Origin: Caldicellulosiruptor danielii
Lineage (GTDB): Bacteria > Bacillota > Thermoanaerobacteria > Caldicellulosiruptorales > Caldicellulosiruptoraceae
Length of the DNA: 64,000 nt
Reading direction: 5' to 3'
Assembly: GCF_034343125.1 (NCBI RefSeq)
Contig: NZ_CP139957.1
Span: forward strand, 891,001-955,000
This document shows positions 38,976 through 52,943 of the stretch, one piece after another. The position numbers and the translations under genes were made by a program. The notes beneath the pieces were generated by a model. The model worked only from the letters and a program-made list of their open reading frames with translations, had not been told where the DNA came from and did no database searches. Position 1 is the first letter of the stretch; the number at the start of each line of letters is the position of its first letter.

Positions 38976-40007
38976 ATGAGAATTAGTAGACTTGATGACG
39001 TGGAAAAGTTCAAAATCGAAGATGAAAGATTATTTTTTTCTGCCCAACATGAAGAGATTAAAATGGGTTTGACTACAGATATATACTTCATAAAAACACT
39101 TGAGGTTTTGAGATACCTTAAAAGAGAGGATGCCTATGTTAAAGCTGAAATTTTTGCAAGAAGAGAAGGGATATTTTGTGGTCTTCCAGAAGTTTTAAAT
39201 CTTTTGAAAGATGTTGATTGTAAGGTATATACTCTTGACGAAGGAGAAAGCTTTTCTGCAAAAGAGGTTGTAATGAGAATTGAAGGAAGATATGTAGATT
39301 TTGGAATTTATGAAACACCTATTCTTGGTATACTGGCAAGTTCATCTGCATGGGCAACAGCTGCACGTGAGTGCAAGCAGGCAGCAGGTGACAAGCCAAT
39401 CTTGTGCTTTGGTGCACGCCACATCCATCCTTCAGTTGCGCCTGTAATGGAAAGGGCAGCAAAAGTGGGTGGCGCTGATGGAGTAAGCTGCATATTGGCA
39501 GCCAAAATATTAGGAATTTCTCCATCGGGAACAATTCCACATGCCGCAATACTGATTGCTGGGTCAACAGAAGATGTTGCAGTAGCCTATGATAAGGTGA
39601 TTCCAGAAGACTCACCTCGCATCATACTTGTTGACACGTTCAAGGACGAAGCACAAGAGGCACTGGATGTTGCAAGGATATTGAAAGAAAGGTTGCATGG
39701 CATAAGACTTGATACCCCGGGTGAAAGAGGCGGCGTTACGCCCGAGCTTGTATATGAGGTAAGAAAGAGGCTTGATTTGGAAGGTTTTTCACATGTGAAG
39801 ATATTTGTCTCAGGCGGACTTTACCCTGAGAAGATAAAAGCTTTATCTGAAGCAGGAGCTGATGCTTTTGGCGTTGGAAGCTATATCTCTTCAGCGCCTC
39901 CAATTGACATGACAATGGATATAAAAGAGGTTGACGGCAAACCTGTTGCAAAAAGAGGAAGAATTCCTGGGGTTACAGAAAATAAGAGGCTAAAGAGGGT
40001 GAAGTGA
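38976..40007 (+). CDS. pncB: Nicotinate phosphoribosyltransferase
   Basis: 343 aa, the short archaeal/clostridial NAPRTase form, making nicotinate mononucleotide for NAD salvage. Visible: TTDIYFIKTLEVLR, EGIFCGLPEVL, ETPILGILASSSAWAT, FGARHIHPSVAPVMERAA, GTIPHAAIL, LDTPGERGGVTPELVYEVR and FVSGGLYPEKI...GVGSYIS. AAGGGGAAGTGAG lies before ATG 38976. It sits 50 bases downstream of cbiO and may be in its operon, without an obvious functional link. Confidence 0.93.
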   Translation: MRISRLDDVEKFKIEDERLFFSAQHEEIKMGLTTDIYFIKTLEVLRYLKREDAYVKAEIFARREGIFCGLPEVLNLLKDVDCKVYTLDEGESFSAKEVVMRIEGRYVDFGIYETPILGILASSSAWATAARECKQAAGDKPILCFGARHIHPSVAPVMERAAKVGGADGVSCILAAKILGISPSGTIPHAAILIAGSTEDVAVAYDKVIPEDSPRIILVDTFKDEAQEALDVARILKERLHGIRLDTPGERGGVTPELVYEVRKRLDLEGFSHVKIFVSGGLYPEKIKALSEAGADAFGVGSYISSAPPIDMTMDIKEVDGKPVAKRGRIPGVTENKRLKRVK

Positions 40008-40133
40008 TTTTAAAAGATCCAGATAACTCATAAATAGTTCATAATTGGTTCAAGAAGATTGATATATTGATGTTTAAAACGTATTTTTACCCTCTTTTTT
40101 CTTATGCTTCGTGTTGGCTAGAAAATAAAAGTT

Positions 40134-40163
40134 TTTACTTTTCATCAACTAAAGTGTTATAAT
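40134..40163 (+). promoter_or_regulatory. Candidate promoter of the BREX operon
   Basis: TTACTT (40134-40139), 18-base spacer, TATAAT (40158-40163), 80 bases before the putative brxF start. The 235-base gap 40008-40242 holds no other recognisable element. Confidence 0.45.
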
Positions 40164-40242
40164 TATAGTTGATAAATTTTAGCAAAGAATATTTTAATTT
40201 AAGCCAAAAGCTTATAATGCCTTTAGATGGGAGGTATTAACA

Positions 40243-40704
40243 ATTCTTAAGTGGGAGTCTATACTTGGTGAACTTGATAAATATTACTACAAACTTGCTC
40301 TTATTATAAGTGAAAATCCAAGCCAAACAAGTAAAATTTTGAAAGAATTATCAACAACATTTGGTATAAGATATATAAATCTTAATCTTGAGTTAGCAAA
40401 TTATTTGGTTGAAATTCCGTTTTCTGAAAGGTGGTTACATGTCAGCAAAGCAATTGACGAAATTATATTAAAAAATGAAGACCAGAGCCTTGTTATTGAT
40501 AATACAGACATACTGTTTGAAGAGCATTTAAAAATTGACCCAGTTGGAGTTTTAAAGAATGCAAGCAAGTATAAAAAATTAATTGCTTCTCTCAGAGCAC
40601 GAATTGAAAATAATTATATCATCTACGCAAACCCGCAAGCTAAGGAATACAAAAAGTATAAGATTGATAATCTTGAGTGTTATGTAATAAATCTACAGGA
40701 GTGA
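40243..40704 (+). CDS. brxF: BrxF, small P-loop-like protein of BREX type 3 (putative AUU start)
   Basis: About 153 aa, first gene of the BREX type 3 operon. The frame opens upstream but has no ATG, GTG or TTG before 40339; ATT at 40243 sits exactly 8 bases after GGGAGG (40229-40234) and gives the family-like N terminus xLKWESILGELDKYYYKLALI. The TTG at 40339 would remove the first strand and has no SD. Where BrxF proteins have a P-loop (GPAGSGKT type), this one reads ISENPSQTSK, lacking the GKT/S. A Walker B-like LVIDNTDILFE follows near residue 85, and ASLRARIEN, ANPQAKEYKKYKI near the end. Stop lies 6 bases before brxC. Confidence 0.75.
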   Translation: MLKWESILGELDKYYYKLALIISENPSQTSKILKELSTTFGIRYINLNLELANYLVEIPFSERWLHVSKAIDEIILKNEDQSLVIDNTDILFEEHLKIDPVGVLKNASKYKKLIASLRARIENNYIIYANPQAKEYKKYKIDNLECYVINLQE

Positions 40705-40710
40705 TGATTT

Positions 40711-43700
40711 TTGAGGTATAAAGATGTAATAAATTTCGAGCCCATTGAAACCTTGATTCAACTTGTAGATGCTAATGAAAAGGAAAAAGCGAAAAATCTA
40801 ATTAAAACTTTTGTCATGTCTGATTCAATGGCTGAGGTTTTGTGCGATATTGTCATTCCTCAGCTTCAATTTGAGGAATTTAGTGATAATAAAGGAATAT
40901 TTGTTGTTGGAAACTACGGAACAGGTAAGTCACACTTGATGGCAGTTATATCGGCTATTGCCGAAGATAAAGAATTATTAGATTACGTAAATAATGAAAA
41001 ATTTAAGAAAGCAGCAGAAAAAATAGCTGGAAAATTTGAAGTAGTAAGAATAGAAATTGGCTCTGTTACAACAAGTTTAAGAGATATTATACTAAAAAGA
41101 GACATTGAAAGTGATTTGAAAAGAAGAGGGATTGATTATACATTTCCATCAATGAATGAAATTTCTAATAACAAGGATTCAATTATTGAAATGATGGCAA
41201 AGTTCGAAGAAAAGTATCCTGAAAAAGGATACTTAATTGTTATTGATGAATTACTTGATTTTCTAAGAACGAGAAAAGAGCATGAACTGAGGCTTGATTT
41301 GGGATTTTTGAGGGAATTGGGTGAAGTATGTAAAAACACTCGTGTTAGAATAATTGCAGGTGTTCAGGAGTCGTTGTTTGACAGTTCAAGTTTTTCTTAT
41401 GTTTCAGATAAGATAATGCAGGTGAAAGACAGATTTGAGAATATAATAATCAAAAAAGAAGATATTGCATATGTAGTATCTCAAAGATTGCTCAAAAAAA
41501 GTGATACTCAGAAAGCCTTTATTCGAGAACATCTAAAAAAATTTAGTAATCTATACAAGAATATGGGTGATAGACTTGAAGAATATGTAGAGCTTTATCC
41601 CATACATCCTTCTTACATAGATGTATTTCAAAAGGTACTTATTGCTGAGCAAAGAGAAATTTTAAAAACAATCAGTCGAACAATTTCAAAATTGTTAGAT
41701 GAAGAGATTCCTGAAGATGATACAGGAATAATTTCTTATGATTCTTATTGGGACTTTATAAAAGAAATGCCAGCTGCAAGAGCCCATCCTGACGTAAGAC
41801 AGGTTATTGATGCAAGTAGTGTTCTGGAAAATATAATTAACAACTCTTTTCCCAAGAAAGTTTACAAAAATTATGCAATTAAAATAATAAAAGCCCTTAG
41901 TGTTTACAGACTTGCTACTGGTGACATACATGTACCGCTGGGATTGACTATTGAAAATATCAAAGATGATTTGTGTTTTAATATACCTGATTTACCAGAG
42001 AAAGAAGAGGATTTTTTGATTACCACTATTGAGTCTATAATGAAAGAGATATTAAAGACTGTTGATAACAAGTTCATTTCATTTAACAAAGAAAATAACC
42101 AATATTATTTAGATGTTGCCAAAGTAGGCATTGATTATTTGGCAAAGATTGAGGAAAAGGCTGAGCTAATAGACGACGATATAGTGAACAGACATTTCTA
42201 CAATATAATATTGAGGCTCCTGAATTGGGAAGAGAAAGCTGCAACCCCTTACGTTAAGGGACATCGAATATGGGAGTATGACCTTATTTGGGAAGATAAA
42301 AACATAGAGAGGCACGGCTATTTATTTTTAGGGACACCGAATGAAAGACCTACTGCACAGCCACCAAGAGATTTTTATATCTATTTTACAAGACTTTATG
42401 AATTTAATGACTGGGAAGATAATAAAAAAGATGATGAAGTTTTTTTCAGTTTTGCCTTGGATGATGATACACTGATAACAAAACTAAAAATGTATGCTGC
42501 AGCCCATGAACTATCTGAAGGTGTTGATACTTCAAGCAAAAGTTCGTATCTAAAATGGGCAACCAAGTTTGAAAAAGAAATATTGGAAATTATAAATAAC
42601 AACAAAAATACCTGTTTTAATGTCACCTATAAAGGTGAAACAAAATCAATGTTTGAAGTATTGCAAGGGAGAGTTCCCAGCAACAAGACAATTAAAGAGC
42701 TTGTTGATAAGGCTGCTTCTATTTGTCTTTCACAGCATTTCAGCAAACTTTACCCACTATATCCGAAGTTCAGTATAACAATTACAAGAAATAATTTAAG
42801 TGAACTTACAAAACAAGTCCTCAACTACATTGCTGGCAAAAAAACAGATACTGCTGCGAAAATCTTAGATGCTTTTGGCTTAATTGAAAATGAAAGAATT
42901 TCCACAAAGAGATCTATATATGCAAAATATTTTGCGGATTTAGTTGCGAAGTTGCCACCAGGTAAAGTGATAAATAGAAATGAGATATTTGAAAAGTGGT
43001 ATAGTGAGGAAGAAGTGGACAAAAATTTTAAATTTGAACCAAACTTTGTTGTTATGATTTTAGCTGCACTTATATACACTGGTGATATTGTTTTAATTGG
43101 TGAACAGGGTAAAGAGTACAATGCTGGTAATCTTGACGAGCTTGCATCTACCAATCTTGTGAATTTAATAAACTTTAAGTATATTACAAGACCAAAGGAG
43201 ATTCCTATTAAAGTACTTGAAAGACTATTTGAGCTATTAGACCTTCCACCAGGACAGATAAAGAATTCCTCGCAGATGGAACAGGGTATTGCTAATATGC
43301 AAAGTAAAGTAGAGAATTTAATTAAAAACACTATTCAGATTTCAGAAAGAATAACCAATAACATTTTGATATGGGACAGAGAAGTTTTCACAGAGAGTGA
43401 AAAGAGAAAGTTCAGGGAAGATTTGAGTAATTTTAAGAATTTTTTAGATAGTTTAAAAAGATATAATACCATTGCAAGACTGAAAACATTTAATTTTTCA
43501 AAGGATGAGATAGAAGAAAAATTTAAAGCATTGAAAGTGATTGAAAAAGTAAAAAAAGTACTTGATTTTAAGGAGCAAGTTGATGATGTTATAAACTATC
43601 TCAAGAATGCTGAGCTGGTTACTGATTCGGAGGAAATTAAGAAAATGATTCAAGATATGAAGGATGAATTAAACAATATATTGCAAGATATAGATAAATT

Positions 43701-44403
43701 AAATGATTTTATAATAAAAGACTTTAAGAACAAATTAGAAATGGTTAAAGAAGCATATATTCAATCTTATTTTGAGAGACATAGAAAATGCAGATTAGAT
43801 ATAAATGGCGATGAGAAAAAGAAGAAGATACTTTCAAGCAAAGAGCTTAGTAACTTGAGAAAATTAAAAAGTATAAAAGACATTTTCAGCATTCAAAAGT
43901 TTGAAGAAATTGAAAAGAAATTAAGTTCAATAAAGACATGTTTTAACTTAATAGAAGAAGATTTAAAAAATCAACCAGTATGTCCGCATTGTGGGTTTAA
44001 ACCTAATAGTGAGGAAGGAATGTCTGCAAGTATGCTATTAGAAAAGGTTGAAGATGATATATATACTATGATTGATGAGACAAAAAACAAGATTTTAAAA
44101 GCTCTTGAAGACAAGGTTGTTAGCGAGAATATAAAGCTTTTGAAGGAACAAGAAAGAAAGGAAATAGAGAAATTCCTTGAGAAAAGAGAATTTGATGAGG
44201 ATATTTCATATAATTTCATTGCTGGAATTAACAATCTGATGGAAGGTTTTGATAAAATAGAATTTGATGTGAATCAGTTGAAGAATTATATCTCTAAGAA
44301 AGGTCCTATGACAGTTGATGAATTTAAAGATACAATAGAAAAGTTTATTGAAACAATGATAAAAGGAAAAACAAAAGACAAAATACGAATTATCGTAAAT
44401 TGA
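40711..44403 (+). CDS. brxC: BrxC/PglY, large ATPase of BREX
   Basis: A 1230-aa P-loop ATPase. Walker A is GNYGTGKS at residues 67-74; Walker B is LIVIDELLDFL near 178; the long C-terminal half is largely helical and charged, with a CPHCGFKP zinc-knuckle-like motif near residue 1092. BrxC is required for BREX defence and is thought to form an AAA+ like assembly; its exact role is unsettled. TTG start with AGGAG 9 bases upstream. Stop overlaps the first bases before pglX. It is full length without frameshift. Confidence 0.93.
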   Translation: MRYKDVINFEPIETLIQLVDANEKEKAKNLIKTFVMSDSMAEVLCDIVIPQLQFEEFSDNKGIFVVGNYGTGKSHLMAVISAIAEDKELLDYVNNEKFKKAAEKIAGKFEVVRIEIGSVTTSLRDIILKRDIESDLKRRGIDYTFPSMNEISNNKDSIIEMMAKFEEKYPEKGYLIVIDELLDFLRTRKEHELRLDLGFLRELGEVCKNTRVRIIAGVQESLFDSSSFSYVSDKIMQVKDRFENIIIKKEDIAYVVSQRLLKKSDTQKAFIREHLKKFSNLYKNMGDRLEEYVELYPIHPSYIDVFQKVLIAEQREILKTISRTISKLLDEEIPEDDTGIISYDSYWDFIKEMPAARAHPDVRQVIDASSVLENIINNSFPKKVYKNYAIKIIKALSVYRLATGDIHVPLGLTIENIKDDLCFNIPDLPEKEEDFLITTIESIMKEILKTVDNKFISFNKENNQYYLDVAKVGIDYLAKIEEKAELIDDDIVNRHFYNIILRLLNWEEKAATPYVKGHRIWEYDLIWEDKNIERHGYLFLGTPNERPTAQPPRDFYIYFTRLYEFNDWEDNKKDDEVFFSFALDDDTLITKLKMYAAAHELSEGVDTSSKSSYLKWATKFEKEILEIINNNKNTCFNVTYKGETKSMFEVLQGRVPSNKTIKELVDKAASICLSQHFSKLYPLYPKFSITITRNNLSELTKQVLNYIAGKKTDTAAKILDAFGLIENERISTKRSIYAKYFADLVAKLPPGKVINRNEIFEKWYSEEEVDKNFKFEPNFVVMILAALIYTGDIVLIGEQGKEYNAGNLDELASTNLVNLINFKYITRPKEIPIKVLERLFELLDLPPGQIKNSSQMEQGIANMQSKVENLIKNTIQISERITNNILIWDREVFTESEKRKFREDLSNFKNFLDSLKRYNTIARLKTFNFSKDEIEEKFKALKVIEKVKKVLDFKEQVDDVINYLKNAELVTDSEEIKKMIQDMKDELNNILQDIDKLNDFIIKDFKNKLEMVKEAYIQSYFERHRKCRLDINGDEKKKKILSSKELSNLRKLKSIKDIFSIQKFEEIEKKLSSIKTCFNLIEEDLKNQPVCPHCGFKPNSEEGMSASMLLEKVEDDIYTMIDETKNKILKALEDKVVSENIKLLKEQERKEIEKFLEKREFDEDISYNFIAGINNLMEGFDKIEFDVNQLKNYISKKGPMTVDEFKDTIEKFIETMIKGKTKDKIRIIVN

Positions 44404-44417
44404 TGGAGGAGTTTGAG

Positions 44418-46970
44418 ATGGAGCTTACAAAAGAGATTCTTGATAGTGTTCGAAACATTGAAGGTTTTCCAATTGCAGATGATGAAGATATAATAAGACT
44501 TTCTGACCCGCCGTATTATACAGCTTGTCCAAATCCCTTTATAAAAGACTTTATTGAAAAATACGGGAAAAAATATGACGAAAAAACAGATGATTATAAT
44601 GTTGAACCATATACTGCAGATATCTCTGAGGGGAAAAACGATCCTATATACAATGCTCATTCTTACCATACAAAAGTTCCTTATAAGGCAATTATGAGAT
44701 ATATTTTACATTACACAAAACCTGGTGATATTGTTTTTGATGGATTTTGTGGGTCGGGCATGACAGGTGTAGCAGCGGCAATGTGCGAAAGTCCCGACCC
44801 AGAGTTTAAATTTGTTTTAGAAAAAGAATTTGAACAAAGGGGTAAGAAAATAGAGTGGGGTGCAAGAAGGGCAATTTTATGTGATTTATCACCGGCAGCT
44901 ACTTTTATAGCTTATAACTACAACAATCCTGTTGATCCCGAGGAATTTGAGAAAGAAGCAAAAAGGATTCTGGAAGAAGTTGAAAAAGAATGTGGCTGGA
45001 TGTATGAAACCATACATGTTAACAAATACGGAAAGCCAGAGACTGGGTTTGGTGGAGAGATTATAAAAGGTAAAATAAATTATACAGTTTGGTCTGATGT
45101 CTTCATTTGCCCAAGTTGTGGGCAGGAGATTGTGTTTTGGGATGTGGCGGTTGATAAAGAAAATGGTGAGGTTTTAGATAGTTTCAATTGTCCATTTTGC
45201 AATGCTTTGCTGAAAAAGACTATTTTGGAAAGGGCAACAGTGACCGTTTATGATAGAGCACTAAAAGAGTATATAGTTCAGGCAAAACAGGTTCCTGTTT
45301 TGATAAATTATTCAGTAAACGGCAGGCGGTTTGAAAAAAAGCCTGATAAGTTTGACCTCGAGCTATTACAAAAAATAGAAGAGATGGATATTCCGTATTG
45401 GTATCCTACTGATAGAATGCCTGAGGGTGATGAGTCAAGGAGAAACGATAAGTATGGCATAACTCATGTTCATCATTTTTATACAAAGAGGAATTTGTGG
45501 GTTTTGAGTTGTTTGTATGATAAGGTAAAAAAAAACAGACGTTTACTATTTGTTTTTACAGCTGTTAATCCAAGATTAGCTACAAAAATGTCAGTTTATA
45601 GGGTTGGTAAGGGAAAAAGCAATTTAACGAGTGGGACATTATATGTTCCATCTTTTAATAGTGATTACAATTTAATCGAAAGTTTTACAACAAAAATTAA
45701 ATCAATAAAAAATGTGTTTAAATCTTTGAATGGAAATGTAGGCAATGTTATATCTACCAATTCAATGCTTGATTTACGATTTTTACCATCAAACTCAATT
45801 GACTACATCTTCACTGACCCTCCCTATGGAGATAACCTTATGTATTCAGAGTTAAACTTTATTTGGGAGGCATGGCTGAGAGTATTTACCAACAATAAAA
45901 CAGAGGCAATAATAAACAAAGTGCAGAGAAAAGGTCTTTCTGAATACCAAGAATTAATGGAACAGTGCTTCAAAGAAATGTATAGAATACTTAAACCTGG
46001 TAGATGGATAACAGTTGAGTTCCACAATACTAAAAATGCTGTATGGAATGCCATCCAAGAAGCTATGTTAAGAGCAGGATTTGTTATTGCTAATGTCAGA
46101 GCACTTGATAAAAAACAGGGCAGTTTTAAACAAGTCACAACAACTACAGCTACAAAACAGGATTTAATAATCTCTGCATATAAACCAAAAGAAAGTTTTG
46201 AAAAGAAGTTCTATTTAGAAGTAGGAACAGAAGAAGGTGTTTGGGAATTTGTAAGACAGCATCTTGAGAAGCTTCCTGTTGTGGTTGAAAATAATGGAGT
46301 TTTGGAATATATCCCTGAAAGGCAAGCTTATTTGTTATACGATGCAATGGTTGCTTATCATGTTCAAAGAGGTCTGAGCATTCCAATGGGAGCAGCCGAG
46401 TTTTATAAGGGCTTAAAAGAAAGATTTATAGAAAGGGATGGAATGTACTTTCTTCCAAGCCAGGCTCCTAAATATGAAGAAAAAAGATACAGGCTTGAGC
46501 TAAAAAAGCAGCTTTCATTTGTTATTGTTGATGAGAAAAGTGCCATTCAATGGATAAGAAACGAGCTTGAAAAACAACCACAGACTTATCAAGAACTACA
46601 ACCAAAGTTTTTGAAGGCAAAGCATGAGTTCAAGCATGAAAAGTTACCGGAGCTTTTGCAATTACTTGAAGAAAACTTCTTACAAGATAAAAATGGTAAA
46701 TGGTATGTGCCTGATGTTAATAAGCAATCAGATCTTGAAAAGCTGAGAACTAAAAATCTTTTGAGGGAATTTGAAGGATACTTAAGTGTCAAGGGCAAGT
46801 TGAAAGTATTCAGGACAGAAGCAATAAGAGCCGGATTTAAGGATTTATGGCAAAAGAAAGATTATAAAACAATTGTAAAGGTGGCTGAAAAACTTCCAGA
46901 GTCAGTTTTACAAGAAGATACAGTTCTTTTGATGTATTATGACAATGCTCTGACAAGATTAGGTGAATAG
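44418..46970 (+). CDS. pglX: PglX-type adenine DNA methyltransferase of BREX type 3 (PglXI)
   Basis: An 850-aa N6-adenine methyltransferase that marks the host genome. SAM motif DGFCGSGMTG lies at about residues 108-117 and catalytic DPPY at 467-470; a zinc-ribbon insertion (CPSCGQ...CPFCNA) lies at about 230-275. This order (SAM motif before DPPY) and the DUF1156-like character match the BREX type 3 methylase rather than the type 1 PglX. The C-terminal 250 residues look like winged-helix modules. ATG 44418 is chosen because GGAGG at 44405-44409 is 8 bases upstream. Confidence 0.92.
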   Translation: MELTKEILDSVRNIEGFPIADDEDIIRLSDPPYYTACPNPFIKDFIEKYGKKYDEKTDDYNVEPYTADISEGKNDPIYNAHSYHTKVPYKAIMRYILHYTKPGDIVFDGFCGSGMTGVAAAMCESPDPEFKFVLEKEFEQRGKKIEWGARRAILCDLSPAATFIAYNYNNPVDPEEFEKEAKRILEEVEKECGWMYETIHVNKYGKPETGFGGEIIKGKINYTVWSDVFICPSCGQEIVFWDVAVDKENGEVLDSFNCPFCNALLKKTILERATVTVYDRALKEYIVQAKQVPVLINYSVNGRRFEKKPDKFDLELLQKIEEMDIPYWYPTDRMPEGDESRRNDKYGITHVHHFYTKRNLWVLSCLYDKVKKNRRLLFVFTAVNPRLATKMSVYRVGKGKSNLTSGTLYVPSFNSDYNLIESFTTKIKSIKNVFKSLNGNVGNVISTNSMLDLRFLPSNSIDYIFTDPPYGDNLMYSELNFIWEAWLRVFTNNKTEAIINKVQRKGLSEYQELMEQCFKEMYRILKPGRWITVEFHNTKNAVWNAIQEAMLRAGFVIANVRALDKKQGSFKQVTTTTATKQDLIISAYKPKESFEKKFYLEVGTEEGVWEFVRQHLEKLPVVVENNGVLEYIPERQAYLLYDAMVAYHVQRGLSIPMGAAEFYKGLKERFIERDGMYFLPSQAPKYEEKRYRLELKKQLSFVIVDEKSAIQWIRNELEKQPQTYQELQPKFLKAKHEFKHEKLPELLQLLEENFLQDKNGKWYVPDVNKQSDLEKLRTKNLLREFEGYLSVKGKLKVFRTEAIRAGFKDLWQKKDYKTIVKVAEKLPESVLQEDTVLLMYYDNALTRLGE

Positions 46971-46973
46971 GCA

Positions 46974-49499
46974 ATGATGGAGAAAGATCATTTTGTTTAT
47001 GTAAAAAGTCTAAAAAAGTATGCAAAAGTTTTGGATATAAAAGAATTATGGGGTTATAAAATATATGTGGTTTTAGATACATCTTCTAATGTGGTTTACG
47101 AAGTAACTGATATAGACATAGAAGAGGATGTAAAATTTAATGTGTATGAATTCAAGTATATTTTGAATGCTGCTAAGCTAAAAAATATAATCTCTGGCGG
47201 GATACTGTCACCCTTGAGTGGCAGTATTCTGCCATTACCTCATCAGATTTATACTCTGAAAAGAGCTTTGTCCAGCGATAAAGTGAGATTTGTTTTGGCT
47301 GATGAGGTGGGGCTTGGTAAAACTATTGAAGCAGGACTAATAATGAAGGAATTGAAACTAAGAGGACTTATAAAAAGAATTCTTATCTTGGCTCCCAAAG
47401 GGCTTATATTGCAGTGGCAGGAGGAGATGAAAGAAAAATTTTCCGAGGACTTCAGAATAATCCTACCCCAAGATTTAGATGTTTTAAAGAGAGTATACGA
47501 TAAAGAAAATATCTGGACCATTTTTGACCAAGTAATATCCTCACATGATTCAGTAAAGCCAATTGAAGGCAGAGCCGGTTGGACAGCTGAGAAAATAGAA
47601 GAGGTTAATACTCAAAGATTTTTAAATTTGATTAATGCCAATTGGGATTTAATTGTGATTGACGAGGCACACAGACTTGCTGGAGCAACTTCTAATGTAG
47701 CAAGATATAAGCTCGGTAAGGCATTGGCTGTAGCAAGTCCTTACCTTTTGTTGTTAACAGCTACACCTCATCAAGGAAAAAGTGATTCTTTTTTAAGATT
47801 AATGAGATTCATAGACCAGTATGCTTTTCCAACAGAAAAAGCTATAACTAAGGAGCAAGTCGCGCCTTTCATCATAAGAACCGAAAAAAGAGAGGCTATT
47901 GATTTTAATGGTAATAAGCTTTTTAAAAATAGATATACAAAACTTATAAGTATTAGATGGCAAGAGAAACATAGTTTGCAAAAATTGTTATACAAAAAGG
48001 TAACCGAATATGTTGCAAAGGGTTATAATCAAGCAGTTAAAGAGAAAAAAACTTACATTGGATTTTTGCTTATTTTGATGCAAAGGCTTGTAACAAGCAG
48101 CACAAGAGCAATAAAAGATTATATTGAAAGGCGAATTAAAATTTTAGAAAATCAGGAGTTCCTGAATAAAGATATTGATTTTGAAGAAATTTATGATGAG
48201 GCTATGGAATATGCCAAGCAGTCATTACTTCAAACTGTAAGTTTTAATATCAAAAAAGAGATAACACAACTAAAAGAGATACTCTCAGTCGCAAACCAAG
48301 CAGAGGCACAATTTATAGATGCAAAAGCAGAAGCATTGTTGGATTTAATATTTAAAATCAGGATGGAGCAAAAGGATTCAAAGTTTCTGATATTTACTGA
48401 GTTTATTGAAACTCAGGAATACTTATATGATATTTTGACAAATCAGGGGTATAACGTTGTTAAATTAAATGGTTCAATGAATATAGAGGAAAGAAAAGAA
48501 ATATTGTCAAAATTTAAAGAAAATGCAGATATTTTAATTTCAACTGATGCAGGGGGAGAGGGAATAAATCTTCAGTTTTGCAATATAGTCATAAACTATG
48601 ATATGCCATGGAATCCTATGAAGATAGAACAACGAATAGGACGTGTTGATAGAATTGGACAACAAAAAGATGTATTTGTGTTTAATTTTGTTCTTGAAGA
48701 TACTGTTGAGAATAGAGTAAGAGAAATTTTAGAAGAAAAATTGAGGGTAATATTTCAGGAATTTGGAGTTGACAAAATGGGTGATATACTTGATAGTTTT
48801 GAGGCGGGCATAGATTTTACAGAAGTATATATTAAGTCCATATCAAATCCTTCTAATTTGGAAAGATATGTTTATTCTATTGAGAATAAGATAAGAGAAA
48901 AGACAGAAATTTTACATAAAATGAAGGATATTCTTAAGGATGAAAAAGTTCTAAGTGTAAATCTGCTTGCAGAATTGCCTTCAGACAAAGTTGACGAGTA
49001 TATACGAAAGATGTATCTATATAAAGAAATCTCATTAGGTAATGAAGCAGATATTTTAAATATTTCCGAGGAAACTCTTAGTTTAGAAAATGATAAAATA
49101 AAGGAATTATTAAATATTCCGGAATATCCTATTTCAAAAAGAATACCAGTTGTTAAACTGGAAAGTAACACAATTTACGAAAAAGGTTATTGGTCATTAT
49201 GGGAAGTTGGCATAAAAAACACTCAGAGATATTGCAAAGTATTTCCAGTATTTATTAACTTAGAGGGTGACTATAGACCCGGCACATCTAAAACGGTATG
49301 GGATATTTTATTAAAAGAATCTTTTGATTTTTCTCAAGATATTGATATAGATGAAACTTTATTGGAAAAGACAAAAATTACAGCTATTGAATTAGCATAT
49401 AACCATTTTAGTGAAATGAGAAAAGAATATATAGAGCAGATAAACAAAGAAATAGAAAAATTTAAGATAGCATTTTCTTTAAAAAAGAAGCTGCACTGA
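46974..49499 (+). CDS. brxHII: BrxHII, SNF2/DEAD-type helicase of BREX type 3, C terminus frameshifted
   Basis: An 841-aa superfamily 2 helicase: Q-motif region LPHQIYTLKRAL, Walker A ADEVGLGKT at about residues 109-117, DEAH box in VIDEAHRLAG near 229, LTATPHQGKSD, then helicase C domain ISTDAGGEGINLQFCN and EQRIGRVDRIGQ. It ends early at TGA 49497-49499. Adding one A to the six-A run 49481-49486 continues the frame for about 50 residues (EAALSLGIENIKRHRLQQIE..., ending at TGA 49634-49636), a charged coiled tail typical of the family. Most of the motor is intact. It lies 3 bases after pglX. Confidence 0.92.
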   Translation: MMEKDHFVYVKSLKKYAKVLDIKELWGYKIYVVLDTSSNVVYEVTDIDIEEDVKFNVYEFKYILNAAKLKNIISGGILSPLSGSILPLPHQIYTLKRALSSDKVRFVLADEVGLGKTIEAGLIMKELKLRGLIKRILILAPKGLILQWQEEMKEKFSEDFRIILPQDLDVLKRVYDKENIWTIFDQVISSHDSVKPIEGRAGWTAEKIEEVNTQRFLNLINANWDLIVIDEAHRLAGATSNVARYKLGKALAVASPYLLLLTATPHQGKSDSFLRLMRFIDQYAFPTEKAITKEQVAPFIIRTEKREAIDFNGNKLFKNRYTKLISIRWQEKHSLQKLLYKKVTEYVAKGYNQAVKEKKTYIGFLLILMQRLVTSSTRAIKDYIERRIKILENQEFLNKDIDFEEIYDEAMEYAKQSLLQTVSFNIKKEITQLKEILSVANQAEAQFIDAKAEALLDLIFKIRMEQKDSKFLIFTEFIETQEYLYDILTNQGYNVVKLNGSMNIEERKEILSKFKENADILISTDAGGEGINLQFCNIVINYDMPWNPMKIEQRIGRVDRIGQQKDVFVFNFVLEDTVENRVREILEEKLRVIFQEFGVDKMGDILDSFEAGIDFTEVYIKSISNPSNLERYVYSIENKIREKTEILHKMKDILKDEKVLSVNLLAELPSDKVDEYIRKMYLYKEISLGNEADILNISEETLSLENDKIKELLNIPEYPISKRIPVVKLESNTIYEKGYWSLWEVGIKNTQRYCKVFPVFINLEGDYRPGTSKTVWDILLKESFDFSQDIDIDETLLEKTKITAIELAYNHFSEMRKEYIEQINKEIEKFKIAFSLKKKLH

Positions 49500-49643
49500 G
49501 TTTAGGCATTGAAAATATAAAAAGGCATAGATTACAACAGATTGAGAAGGAGGAAACCGCTGTATTTGAAAGATTATCCGCCCTTCAGGAGATAATACCT
49601 TACTTAAAATTACTGTATATGGCGTATGTGGAGTGATATAAGC

Positions 49644-51515
49644 ATGATAGAAGATGCAATATGGGAAAAAATAAATTCGAATTTATACGATTTTTTATTA
49701 GTTTACGATTACGACAATCTTTTATGTGAATTTAATGTAATAACAAAGATTTTTGATGAAGGTTACGAAGTATTTTACTACAAAGATATTGAGGAATATA
49801 GGATTTTTTATGAGACAGAAATAAGATACACAGATAAAAAAGTTATTTTGATTGTTACAGAAAATGTTTATATTCCTTGGGATGTAAAGTGTGATTATCA
49901 TGAGGTATTAATTAGAGTTAAAGATTTATTTTTTAATCTTGATGTTGATGTTATAAAACAGATTGATGTTGAATATTTCGATGTTATATATCAGAAGATG
50001 CAAAGTCTGAACAGAGTTTTAAACTTTGAGGAAACATGCAATTTTATTTTGAGGTACATTTACAATGTTGATATATCGGTTATAAACAATCTTCAAGACT
50101 TAATAAAACAGTTGCTGAGGCTTTACTTCAAAGGAACTGAGCTTCCTCAAGTATTGTCAGATTTTATAAAGAATAAGTTAGTGTTTTTACCCACTGAAGT
50201 TAGTTGCATTTTAAATTCGAAGAACGAGTTTTTTAAATTTTTTCAGACAGAATTTGATAAATTTGTAAGAAAAGATAAGTATGACGAAATGGATAAAGAA
50301 ACTTATATTGACTTTTTGGATCCCGAAATTAGGGTTTATTTGGATGATTTAATTATGGACAACATTATAAAACTCTCCAAGCCAACTGAATTAAATAATA
50401 GCCTACCAATAAAGCAATTAGGTTTGGTATTTAACCTAAAATCTCAAGAAGAGGAATACAAACATTTAAAAAATAGACTTAAGAATTTATTATGTGAAAT
50501 TAAAAGTCATAAAGACTGGTTTGAGGTGGCAGAAATATTTGGCAGAATAATAAATTTGTGCTGTATTTTAAATGATGATGAATACGAAGCATTAAGTCAA
50601 GAAATCAATGTAAAGTTTAAAGACTGGCTGCTTGAAAATTATGGTAAACTTCCCTATTTATCATATTCAAATGGACCTATTATGGTGCACCATATTCAAC
50701 CATATATAATTAATCTTTTGAAGAAGGAAAATAAAAATAAAGTGGCTTTTATTTTACTTGATGGTATGTCTGAATTTAATTGGACAATAATTAAAGAGTA
50801 TTTAGAAAATATGAATTTGAGAATTGAAAAGAAATCTTGTTTTGCCTGGATACCTACGATAACTTCTATTTCAAGACAATCTATATTTTCAGCAGAGCCT
50901 CCTTTGAGATTCAAAACTACTATGTTTTCAACAAATTATGATGAGAAACATTTTAAAAGGTTCTTTGTGAATAGTGGTTACAAGGAGAAAGAAATTGCTT
51001 ATATTAGGAGTATAAAAACATTTGAAGAGGAAAATTTAAGGAATGCTTTAGAAGAGGATTTCAAAGTGCTTTGCGTTGTTGTAGATGTGATAGATGAGTT
51101 TGTCCATGGACAAGTTTTTAATTACAAGGGCTTACAAAATCAGATAAACTTCTATATGTCTGAAAAGTATTTACAAAAATTTTTAGAAAAACTTTTTAAA
51201 AAGAATTATGAAGTATTTATAGCTTCAGATCACGGCAATGTATTAACAGTCGGACAAGGTAATGTTAAAGAAGGAGTGTATATTGAAACTCTTTCTAATA
51301 GGGTAAAAATATATCCTAAGGATATTCCAATAGAATCTCCGCCTGGAATTAAAATCATCAAATGGGGTGGAATTGGGCTGCCTGATGAGTATAATTATGT
51401 TGTATCTGATGATAATCTATCATTTCATGATAAGGGAAGGACAATTTTGACTCATGGGGGAATATCAATAGAAGAAGTAATTGTGCCTTTTGTTAAGGTA
51501 ATGCCGTCATTATAA
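49644..51515 (+). CDS. pglZ: PglZ, alkaline-phosphatase-superfamily protein of BREX
   Basis: 623 aa. The C-terminal PglZ domain shows the metal-binding pattern of the alkaline phosphatase superfamily: LLDGMSEFNW near residue 370, PTITSISRQSIFSAEPP, VVDVIDEFVHG, and SDHGNVLTVG near 528, then ILTHGGISIEEVIVPFV at the end. PglZ is an essential BREX component, with reported nuclease activity in some systems. ATG 49644 is preferred over ATG 49626, since GGAG at 49630-49633 sits 10 bases before it; the restored brxHII stop would then be at 49634-49636. Confidence 0.92.
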   Translation: MIEDAIWEKINSNLYDFLLVYDYDNLLCEFNVITKIFDEGYEVFYYKDIEEYRIFYETEIRYTDKKVILIVTENVYIPWDVKCDYHEVLIRVKDLFFNLDVDVIKQIDVEYFDVIYQKMQSLNRVLNFEETCNFILRYIYNVDISVINNLQDLIKQLLRLYFKGTELPQVLSDFIKNKLVFLPTEVSCILNSKNEFFKFFQTEFDKFVRKDKYDEMDKETYIDFLDPEIRVYLDDLIMDNIIKLSKPTELNNSLPIKQLGLVFNLKSQEEEYKHLKNRLKNLLCEIKSHKDWFEVAEIFGRIINLCCILNDDEYEALSQEINVKFKDWLLENYGKLPYLSYSNGPIMVHHIQPYIINLLKKENKNKVAFILLDGMSEFNWTIIKEYLENMNLRIEKKSCFAWIPTITSISRQSIFSAEPPLRFKTTMFSTNYDEKHFKRFFVNSGYKEKEIAYIRSIKTFEEENLRNALEEDFKVLCVVVDVIDEFVHGQVFNYKGLQNQINFYMSEKYLQKFLEKLFKKNYEVFIASDHGNVLTVGQGNVKEGVYIETLSNRVKIYPKDIPIESPPGIKIIKWGGIGLPDEYNYVVSDDNLSFHDKGRTILTHGGISIEEVIVPFVKVMPSL

Positions 51516-51537
51516 GTAGCAGAAAGGATGAAATTTT

Positions 51538-52251
51538 GTGAAGGCAATAGGCTTTTTAAAACCAGTTCGAGTTGAATGGTTGAACATAACTGTTGAAGAA
51601 CTTATTAAAGGAAAAGAGAAGAATGAAATCAGGGATGTGTTAAAGAGAATTGTGTCGAACTATTATAAAAGTGAGGATACAATAAGAAAAATTTTAGCAA
51701 TATTAATGAGCACATGGGTAAATGTCTCAGAAAAAAATATGTGTCTAAGAGATAGGGGAGTTGATTTGTTTAAAATAGCGAACCCAGACGAAAAAATAGC
51801 GTTGCATTTTGGCATGCTGATGGTCACTTATCCAATATTCAATGATGTTGTCTTTATTATTGGAAAAGCTTTTTATCTCGAAAATAAATTTAAGCTGGAA
51901 TATCTAAAGAAGAGAATATTTGAAAAGTGGGGAGAAAGAGAAACTCTAAGATTTTCAATTGATAGAATAATTAAAACTCTCAAAGATTGGGGGCTGATTG
52001 TCAGTAAAAATTCTGGTGTATATGAACCAGGTACAAAAGTGACAATTACTAGTAAAGAAATAAAAGCATTTTTAATTGCTTGTTATTTAAAAGCAAATGA
52101 AAGAAATTATATTAACATCAACGAGATTGAAAATTTATATTCTTTTTTTCCGTTTAACATAAGTGTTAACTTAAATGAACTAATGAATGTCGATAATTTA
52201 AGTGTAAATAAAATTGATTCTATAATAACAGTTGCTGTGAATAGGTTGTAA
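51538..52251 (+). CDS. brxA: BrxA (DUF1819) protein of BREX
   Basis: 237 aa with the mixed helical, basic character of BrxA/DUF1819, a small DNA-binding BREX subunit: an N-terminal EWLNITVEELIKGKEKNEIRDVLKRIV, RDRGVDLFK, DEKIALHFGMLMVTYPIFNDV and a winged-helix-like RETLRFSIDRIIKTLKDWGLI. GTG start with AGAAAGGATG upstream. Its place at the end of the operon after pglZ matches the type 3 order (brxF-brxC-pglX-brxHII-pglZ-brxA). Confidence 0.88.
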   Translation: MKAIGFLKPVRVEWLNITVEELIKGKEKNEIRDVLKRIVSNYYKSEDTIRKILAILMSTWVNVSEKNMCLRDRGVDLFKIANPDEKIALHFGMLMVTYPIFNDVVFIIGKAFYLENKFKLEYLKKRIFEKWGERETLRFSIDRIIKTLKDWGLIVSKNSGVYEPGTKVTITSKEIKAFLIACYLKANERNYININEIENLYSFFPFNISVNLNELMNVDNLSVNKIDSIITVAVNRL

Positions 52252-52309: not shown

Positions 52310-52943
52310 ACAAACCCGAATATAACATAAATGCTTTATGTACATTATCTCCAGAGAAAATGTTTGAAATTATTCTCTTTATGCTTTAAGAAAGGCAATA
52401 ATAAATGCATTAATTCACAGGGATTATTTAGATCTTGCAGACATTCAGATAAAAATTTTTGACGACAAAATAAGATTTTACAATCCTGGTAAATTGCCGG
52501 ATGAGTTAACCATTGAAATGCTAAAACAGAACCATGAATCTAAACCACGTAATAAGCTCATTGCAATGGTTTTTTATTTTGCAGGATTAATTGAAAAATG
52601 GGGAAGTGGGACTAAAAGAATGGTTGAGCTTTGCAAAGAATCAGGATTGCCAGAACCTGAGTTTAAAGAAGAAAGTGGAGGGTTTGTTGTAGAGTTTTAT
52701 AAGGATATTTATAGTGAAGAAATATTGAAAAAAATGGGGCTAAATGAAAGGCAGATAAAGGCTGTTATGTATGTGAAGGAGAAAGGAAGAATAACGAATA
52801 AGGAGTATCAGGAACTCAATAAGATATCAAGACAAATGGCAACTATTGATTTAAAAGAACTTGTTGATGCAGGTTTGCTTAAGCAGGTAGGAAAAGCAGG
52901 AAGAGGAATAGCCTACGAATTGCCCAAAATGACTAACAATTGA
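52310..52943 (+). pseudogene. Remnant of an AlbA_2/Schlafen-type ATP-binding regulator
   Basis: Only the C-terminal part survives. The longest intact frame (52494-52943) codes LPDELTIEMLKQNHESKPRNKLIA..., GLIEKWGSGTKRMVELC and a C-terminal winged helix (RITNKEYQELNKISRQMATIDLKELVDAG). Just upstream the same protein continues in frame as NYSLYALRKAIINALIHRDYLD, but a TGA precedes it; adding one A to the GAAAT at about 52362-52366 joins it to PEKMFE. The N-terminal AlbA_2 domain is missing. Full-length homologues are usually 450-500 aa. It is a decayed gene in the defence island. Confidence 0.75.

What the first reader, a model, noticed from the sequence alone, without database searches (positions are those of the whole stretch)
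40225..40345. brxF appears to start with AUU
The BrxF-like frame has no ATG, GTG or TTG before 40339, yet homology-like sequence extends well upstream. ATT 40243 sits 8 bases after a strong GGGAGG and gives the expected N terminus. AUU is a rare start known from infC, where it enables autoregulation. As the first gene of a costly defence operon, a weak start could keep BREX low until induced. A single-base error is the alternative.
Basis: partly seen in the sequence, partly recalled or inferred. Interest (0 to 1): 0.72.

Follow-up and report, generated by a model that had tools for sequence, protein, structure and literature searches.

The report
Defence gene starting with AUU
The first gene of an anti-phage (BREX) operon appears to begin at the rare start codon AUU in two related bacterial species, most likely so that little of its protein is made; the start is not a sequencing error, but it is of a known kind and has not been tested by experiment.

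Summary
From stop TAA 40195 to TTG 40339 the brxF frame has no ATG, GTG or TTG. ATT 40243 lies 8 nt after GGGAGG and coincides with the initiator Met of BrxF relatives and of the NCBIfam BrxF model. TTG 40339 has no Shine-Dalgarno (SD) sequence and would delete helix 1, core strand 1 and part of helix 2. A second species of the genus (G011) has an intact BREX operon and the same ATT; there the upstream ATG is ATA and an in-frame TAG lies five codons upstream. This excludes sequencing error and the ATG-40227 indel. About 60 other brxF genes of the phylum all have a canonical start, so AUU is specific to this lineage. The SD is among the strongest in the window and equals that of infC, which starts with ATA or ATT in these genomes. 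The SD also lies in a 10-bp hairpin. Best reading: brxF (type 3 BREX) starts at AUU, a weak start partly rescued by a strong SD, giving low BrxF. 'Kept low until induced' is not shown: no inducer, no evidence on IF3, and downstream genes have their own start sites. This is a new member of a known kind.

The parts
40134..40163 (+). predicted promoter of the BREX operon: TTTACT, 18-nt spacer, TATAAT (40158-40163) preceded by TG (extended -10)
   Evidence: consensus scan, 10 of 12 matches with TG; both hexamers identical in G011. Not tested.
40144..40173 (.). inverted repeat ATCAACTA-N14-TAGTTGAT spanning the -10; possible operator
   Evidence: perfect in the window, one arm has a mismatch in G011. 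Weak evidence.
40215..40239 (+). predicted RNA hairpin UAAUGCCUUU-AGAUG-GGAGGUAUUA that pairs the Shine-Dalgarno sequence
   Evidence: same stem in G011; only 9 of 500 shuffled leaders pair the SD as well; 3 of 38 other gene starts are as occluded. Marginal at 70 C in the model.
40229..40234 (+). Shine-Dalgarno GGGAGG (AGGAGG in G011)
   Evidence: duplex energy -14.2 kcal/mol with the assumed anti-SD; only 4 of 52 window starts are as strong; infC of this genome -14.2
40243..40245 (+). proposed start codon ATT (AUU) of brxF
   Evidence: same codon in G011, no canonical alternative, aligned with Met of relatives
40243..40704 (+). brxF, 153 aa, type 3 BREX BrxF
   Evidence: PADLOC BrxF E=1.2e-57; NCBIfam BREX_3_BrxF E=9.7e-41; AF2 pLDDT 92
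40339..40341 (+). first canonical codon (TTG) in the frame; rejected as start
   Evidence: no SD (0.0 kcal/mol); would remove residues 1-32, i.e. helix 4-11, strand 18-23 and part of helix 26-40; 22 to 34 bits lost against BrxF models (vs 10)
40711..44403 (+). brxC (TTG start, own AGGAG)
   Evidence: PADLOC BrxC; Pfam DUF6079
44400..46970 (+). pglXI methyltransferase (start may be ATG 44418)
   Evidence: PADLOC PglXI
46974..49499 (+). brxH helicase (BrxHII position of type 3 BREX)
   Evidence: PADLOC BrxHI|BrxHII
49626..51515 (+). pglZ
   Evidence: PADLOC PglZ
51538..52251 (+). brxA
   Evidence: PADLOC BrxA

Best explanation
brxF, first gene of an intact type 3 BREX operon, is translated from AUU 40243. 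Shown by sequence: no canonical start exists, the AUU sits where relatives have their initiator Met, and the same AUU is present in a second species with an intact operon. Inferred: the ribosome is placed by an unusually strong SD (GGGAGG/AGGAGG, 8 nt away) and initiates at AUU with formyl-Met at low efficiency, because IF3 discriminates against AUU as at infC. A hairpin over the SD may lower initiation further at moderate temperature. The result is constitutively low BrxF relative to BrxC and the rest, which have their own start sites. BrxF, the counterpart of type 1 BrxB, is a non-catalytic partner protein, so a low ratio is tolerable and may be adaptive.
For: No ATG/GTG/TTG from 40198 to 40338. 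G011: same ATT, in-frame TAG five codons upstream (four sense codons between), upstream ATG lost, SD AGGAGG. G011 operon has all six genes open, brxF dN 0.045 / dS 0.259. Met of relatives and profile position 1 fall on this codon. SD among the strongest of 52 gene starts and equal to infC of this genome. infC starts with ATA in the 12 genus genomes examined and ATT in related genera, so such starts are in normal use here. AF2 fold needs residues 1-32. SD paired in a 10-bp hairpin in both species. Measured precedent for AUU plus strong SD, first gene of an operon, about 10% of AUG: cvfC1 of S. aureus (PMC13009471). BrxF-like proteins are inactive STAND proteins (PMC12839542); best PDB fold match is BrxB.
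Against: No experimental data (ribosome profiling, N-terminal peptides). Only two genomes carry it, and lower BREX dS (0.20-0.37) than nadC dS (0.60) suggests the operon was shared after the species split, so they are not two independent origins. At this DNA identity an unchanged ATT is not in itself evidence of selection on the codon. The hairpin is marginal (9 of 500 shuffles, no compensatory changes) and near melting at 70 C in the model. The 16S 3' end of this genome could not be found, so the anti-SD is assumed.
Confidence: 0.85

Rival explanations
1. The true start is the internal TTG 40339 and BrxF of this genus is a 121-aa shortened protein.
For: It is the first canonical start codon and automatic annotation would pick it.
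Against: No SD at TTG 40339 (0.0 kcal/mol) while a very strong SD sits 8 nt before ATT. Homology upstream of it aligns with relatives and adds 22 bits (NCBIfam) and 34 bits (PADLOC). It would remove core strand 1. Both species keep codons 2-32 open and without indels. A B. burgdorferi gene mis-annotated in the same way was settled for the AUU start (PMC13398362).
Confidence: 0.05
2. Sequencing or assembly error: the genome really has ATG/GTG/TTG at 40243, or an indel links the frame to ATG 40227.
For: A single base would suffice in one genome.
Against: G011, a separate and diverged genome, has the same ATT, no ATG at 40227 and a TAG in frame just upstream. The same error would be needed twice.
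Confidence: 0.01
3. The ATT is a decayed start: an ancestral ATG mutated to ATT and BrxF is no longer made or needed, the operon being on its way out.
For: About 60 other brxF genes of the phylum have canonical starts, so ATT is derived; the SD is predicted to be paired too.
Against: dN/dS of about 0.17 in brxF across the two species, no indels or stops; all six genes intact in both; the SD is kept at top strength and reads AGGAGG in G011.
Confidence: 0.05
4. The AUU is a regulatory switch: brxF (and through coupling the operon) is repressed by IF3 and induced when IF3 or initiation changes, for example on infection, as sigR of Streptomyces is repressed by IF3 through its GTC start.
For: AUU is an IF3-discriminated codon; the same genome uses ATA at infC; first cistron of the operon; sigR precedent for a first cistron whose weak start sets the ratio to a coupled partner (PMC5472188); SD-pairing hairpin.
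Against: No evidence that IF3 varies or that BREX is induced; brxC has its own SD and TTG; only two genomes.
Confidence: 0.12

Closest known systems
cvfC1 (AUU), ccpN and citZ (AUA) of Staphylococcus aureus (PMC13009471)
   Same: AUU or AUA start; strong or extended SD for cvfC1 and ccpN; cvfC1 is the first gene of an operon; cvfC1 and ccpN starts conserved in related species
   Different: tested by ribosome profiling and reporters; not a defence gene; an SD-pairing hairpin was not part of what I read there
infC (IF3) with AUU/AUA start
   Same: AUU/AUA start after a strong SD, almost the same SD energy and spacing in this very genome
   Different: product is IF3 itself, giving autoregulation; BrxF has no known role in initiation
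bbe22/pncA of Borrelia burgdorferi (AUU start; PMC13398362)
   Same: AUU start upstream of a mis-annotated start; the lost N terminus is needed for the fold
   Different: verified genetically and by crystal structure; metabolic gene
sigR-rsrA of Streptomyces (GTC start repressed by IF3; PMC5472188)
   Same: non-canonical start in the first cistron of an operon whose product works with a downstream product
   Different: GTC, regulation by IF3 demonstrated, transcription factor system
Type 3 BREX (brxF, brxC, pglXI, brxHII, pglZ, brxA)
   Same: all six genes, same order, BrxF model hit
   Different: start codon of brxF; eroded Walker A in BrxF (a known feature of this protein class)

Membership tests
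Type 3 BREX system | six core genes brxF, brxC, pglXI, brxHII, pglZ, brxA together | tested here: met
   PADLOC hits for all six in order, helicase called BrxHI|BrxHII; NCBIfam BREX_3_BrxF above cut-off
Type 3 BREX system | phage exclusion and host methylation activity | not testable with these tools
   needs phage and methylome assays
genes with a non-canonical AUU/AUA start | no ATG/GTG/TTG that could give the full-length protein | tested here: met
genes with a non-canonical AUU/AUA start | start present in more than one genome | tested here: met
   G000 and G011; only these two of the 12 genus genomes have brxF
genes with a non-canonical AUU/AUA start | strong or extended SD at proper spacing | tested here: met
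   -14.2 and -14.3 kcal/mol, spacing 8 nt; window median -10.8; anti-SD assumed
genes with a non-canonical AUU/AUA start | initiation demonstrated at the codon | not testable with these tools
   needs ribosome profiling or N-terminal peptides
IF3-regulated start (infC, sigR type) | expression responds to IF3 level or IF3 mutants | not testable with these tools
   no expression data held
SD-sequestering leader hairpin (thermosensor-like) | SD paired at low temperature in a conserved stem | tested here: inconclusive
   same 10-bp stem in both species; 9 of 500 shuffles as paired; folding energy about 0 at 70-75 C; no covariation possible with two near-identical leaders

The most novel reading that the evidence does not exclude
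The AUU start together with the SD hairpin makes BREX assembly depend on the state of the initiation machinery (IF3 level, free 30S, temperature), so that brxF translation rises when infection or stress disturbs initiation: a defence operon gated at the start codon of its first gene.
Probability: 0.07. Interest if true: 0.75.

Novelty: new member of a known kind. Interest (0 to 1): 0.42.

Why it matters
Genes with AUU starts are rare in bacteria, and in the literature that could be searched here none was reported in a phage-defence operon. Gene callers will shorten this BrxF to the TTG and lose its first strand, so the annotation matters for anyone studying type 3 BREX. It gives a simple test of whether defence genes are held low at the start codon.

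Tried and rejected
1) Sequencing error or indel to ATG 40227: rejected by G011. 2) Mini-ORF ATG 40227 (MGGINNS, stop inside brxF) as a leader peptide or coupling device: the ATG is absent in G011. 3) TTG 40339: no SD, breaks the fold. 4) Other codons (TTA 40237, ACA 40240, CTT 40246, ATA 40258): wrong distance from the SD or poorer start codons. 5) More genomes with the same site: scans of genome contigs, viral contigs and plasmids gave no close relative; records near the window's own genome may be left out of those. 6) AUU in other brxF: none clear among about 60; G257 (L112) is ambiguous (GTT or ATA after GGGGGA, but an in-frame ATG nine codons upstream). 7) SD-plus-ATT as a motif by itself: not more than chance. 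8) The 16S 3' end of this genome could not be retrieved, so the anti-SD is the usual Firmicute one, assumed. 9) Rfam search of 30000-64000 found only a tRNA. 10) A first pairwise alignment with G011 used the wrong strand and was redone; the minus-strand rows are likewise superseded.

Full report
WHAT IS THERE. The window is part of a 2.82-Mb single-contig genome (G000:C1:891001-955000). Downstream of nadC (38976-40007) lies a six-gene operon, brxF, brxC, pglXI, brxH, pglZ, brxA (40243-52251), identified by PADLOC, NCBIfam and Pfam. This is the gene set of type 3 BREX as described in PMC12839542. The island edge is close to 40010: nadC is found in most other genomes of the genus, but the stretch 40011-40242 with the promoter and leader is shared only by the two genomes that carry brxF (the one other hit, 28 bp in G008, is treated as chance).

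THE START. The brxF frame is open from 40198 to 40704 and contains no ATG, GTG or TTG before TTG 40339. ATT 40243-40245 lies 8 nt downstream of GGGAGG 40229-40234. The motif SD plus ATT is by itself not unusual (5 in the window, 10 expected), so the argument must come from elsewhere. (a) Register: NCBIfam NF033453 aligns residue 6 with profile position 6 and residue 147 with 147 of 149, so the first profile position falls on the ATT; in a MAFFT alignment the initiator Met of several relatives stands in the same column. (b) A second genome: G011, the only other genome of the genus with brxF, is 92% identical in BrxF and reads TAG GAG GTA TTA ACA ATT CTT GGG TGG: same ATT, an in-frame stop five codons upstream, no canonical codon, and ATA in place of ATG 40227. 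This excludes a sequencing error and the indel alternative. (c) The gene is kept: all six BREX genes of G011 are open and under purifying selection (brxF dN 0.045, dS 0.259). (d) The alternative TTG 40339 has no SD (0.0 kcal/mol), loses 22 to 34 bits against the BrxF models (against 10), and by the AlphaFold model (pLDDT 92) would remove helix 4-11, the core strand 18-23 and about half of helix 26-40.

CONTEXT OF THE START. With an assumed standard anti-SD, the SD duplex energy is -14.2 kcal/mol in G000 and -14.3 in G011; 4 of 52 window starts are as strong, the median being -10.8. infC, the textbook gene with a non-canonical start, appears to begin with ATA in all 12 genomes of the genus examined and with ATT in related genera; its SD energy in this genome is also -14.2, at 9 nt spacing. 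So this genome already shows a weak codon paired with a strong SD. In S. aureus, AUU and AUA starts were mapped by ribosome profiling, with extended SDs at infC, cvfC1 and ccpN, and reporters gave about 10% of AUG in poor medium; one of them, cvfC1 (AUU), is the first gene of an operon (PMC13009471).

PHYLOGENY. About 60 other brxF genes, from the relatives and from 399 genomes of the phylum, have ATG, or less often TTG or GTG, in frame near the aligned start (one ambiguous case, L112, and one, L097, with ATG seven codons downstream). AUU is therefore a derived trait of this genus. BREX genes differ less between G000 and G011 (dS 0.20-0.37) than nadC (0.60), so the operon, start codon included, was probably shared after the species split; the two genomes exclude error but are not two origins, and at this identity an unchanged ATT does not by itself prove selection on the codon.

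POSSIBLE SECOND LAYER. The leader is predicted to fold UAAUGCCUUU-AGAUG-GGAGGUAUUA (40215-40239), pairing the SD core; P(unpaired) of GGAGG is 0.03 at 37 C. Only 9 of 500 shuffled leaders pair it as well, and only 3 of 38 other starts in the window are as occluded. Averaged over the longer SD-anti-SD duplex region, which includes the loop, accessibility is ordinary. The stem is identical in G011; the one change falls in the loop. At 70-75 C the isolated stem is at about 0 kcal/mol. The growth temperature of this organism was not established here (from memory the genus may be Caldicellulosiruptor, a thermophile; not tested). This layer is suggestive only. An extended -10 promoter (40134-40163) and an inverted repeat around it (40144-40173) may add transcriptional control; an Acinetobacter BREX operon is controlled by BrxR at a palindrome overlapping its promoter (PMC9122589), but no BrxR gene was identified here.

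MECHANISM. Most likely the AUU is a fixed brake: ribosomes are recruited by the strong SD, IF3 discriminates against AUU, and BrxF is made at a fraction of the AUG rate. BrxF is described as an inactive STAND protein and the likely counterpart of BrxB (PMC12839542); its AlphaFold model best matches BrxB in the Acinetobacter BrxC-BrxB-PglZ complex (9zll, TM 0.58), and its Walker A motif is eroded. A low ratio of a non-catalytic partner to BrxC and PglZ is plausible, as with SigR and RsrA, where a GTC start repressed by IF3 sets the ratio (PMC5472188).

VERDICT. Observation confirmed. Interpretation supported for the AUU start, plausible for low expression, unsupported for induction. A new member of the small class of genes with AUU starts; no earlier case in a phage-defence operon was found in the papers that could be searched, which is not proof of absence.

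Noticed in passing
L067 and L056-L066 (infC): infC appears to start with ATA after AGGAGG/GGGAGG in all 12 genomes of the genus examined, and with ATT in seven related genomes (L070-L076).
   Followed up: yes
40312-40341 (about BrxF residues 24-33): The Walker A motif of BrxF is eroded in both genus members (SENPSQTSK, SGNPNQTSK) while several relatives keep GxxGSGKT.
   Followed up: partly
40227-40250: Mini-ORF ATG...TAA (MGGINNS) overlaps the SD and the start of brxF in another frame; its ATG is ATA in G011.
   Followed up: yes
40144-40173: Perfect 8-bp inverted repeat with 14-bp spacer around the extended -10, possible operator; one mismatch in G011.
   Followed up: partly
38976-52251 vs L078: BREX genes have dS 0.20-0.37 between the two species but nadC has 0.60, suggesting later exchange of the island.
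   Followed up: partly
52494-52943: Downstream of brxA, an ORF matching only the C-terminal part (HATPase_c_4, RecG-C-terminal type) of a larger protein; looks like a remnant.
   Followed up: no
L112 (G257 brxF): Another brxF in which the well-spaced codon after GGGGGA would be GTT or ATA; an in-frame ATG nine codons upstream makes it ambiguous.
   Followed up: partly
44400-44420: pglX may start at ATG 44418 (after GGAGGA) rather than at TTG 44400.
   Followed up: no
G000: No 16S rRNA match by Rfam model or by the conserved 3' end pattern; possibly masked in the held copy.
   Followed up: no
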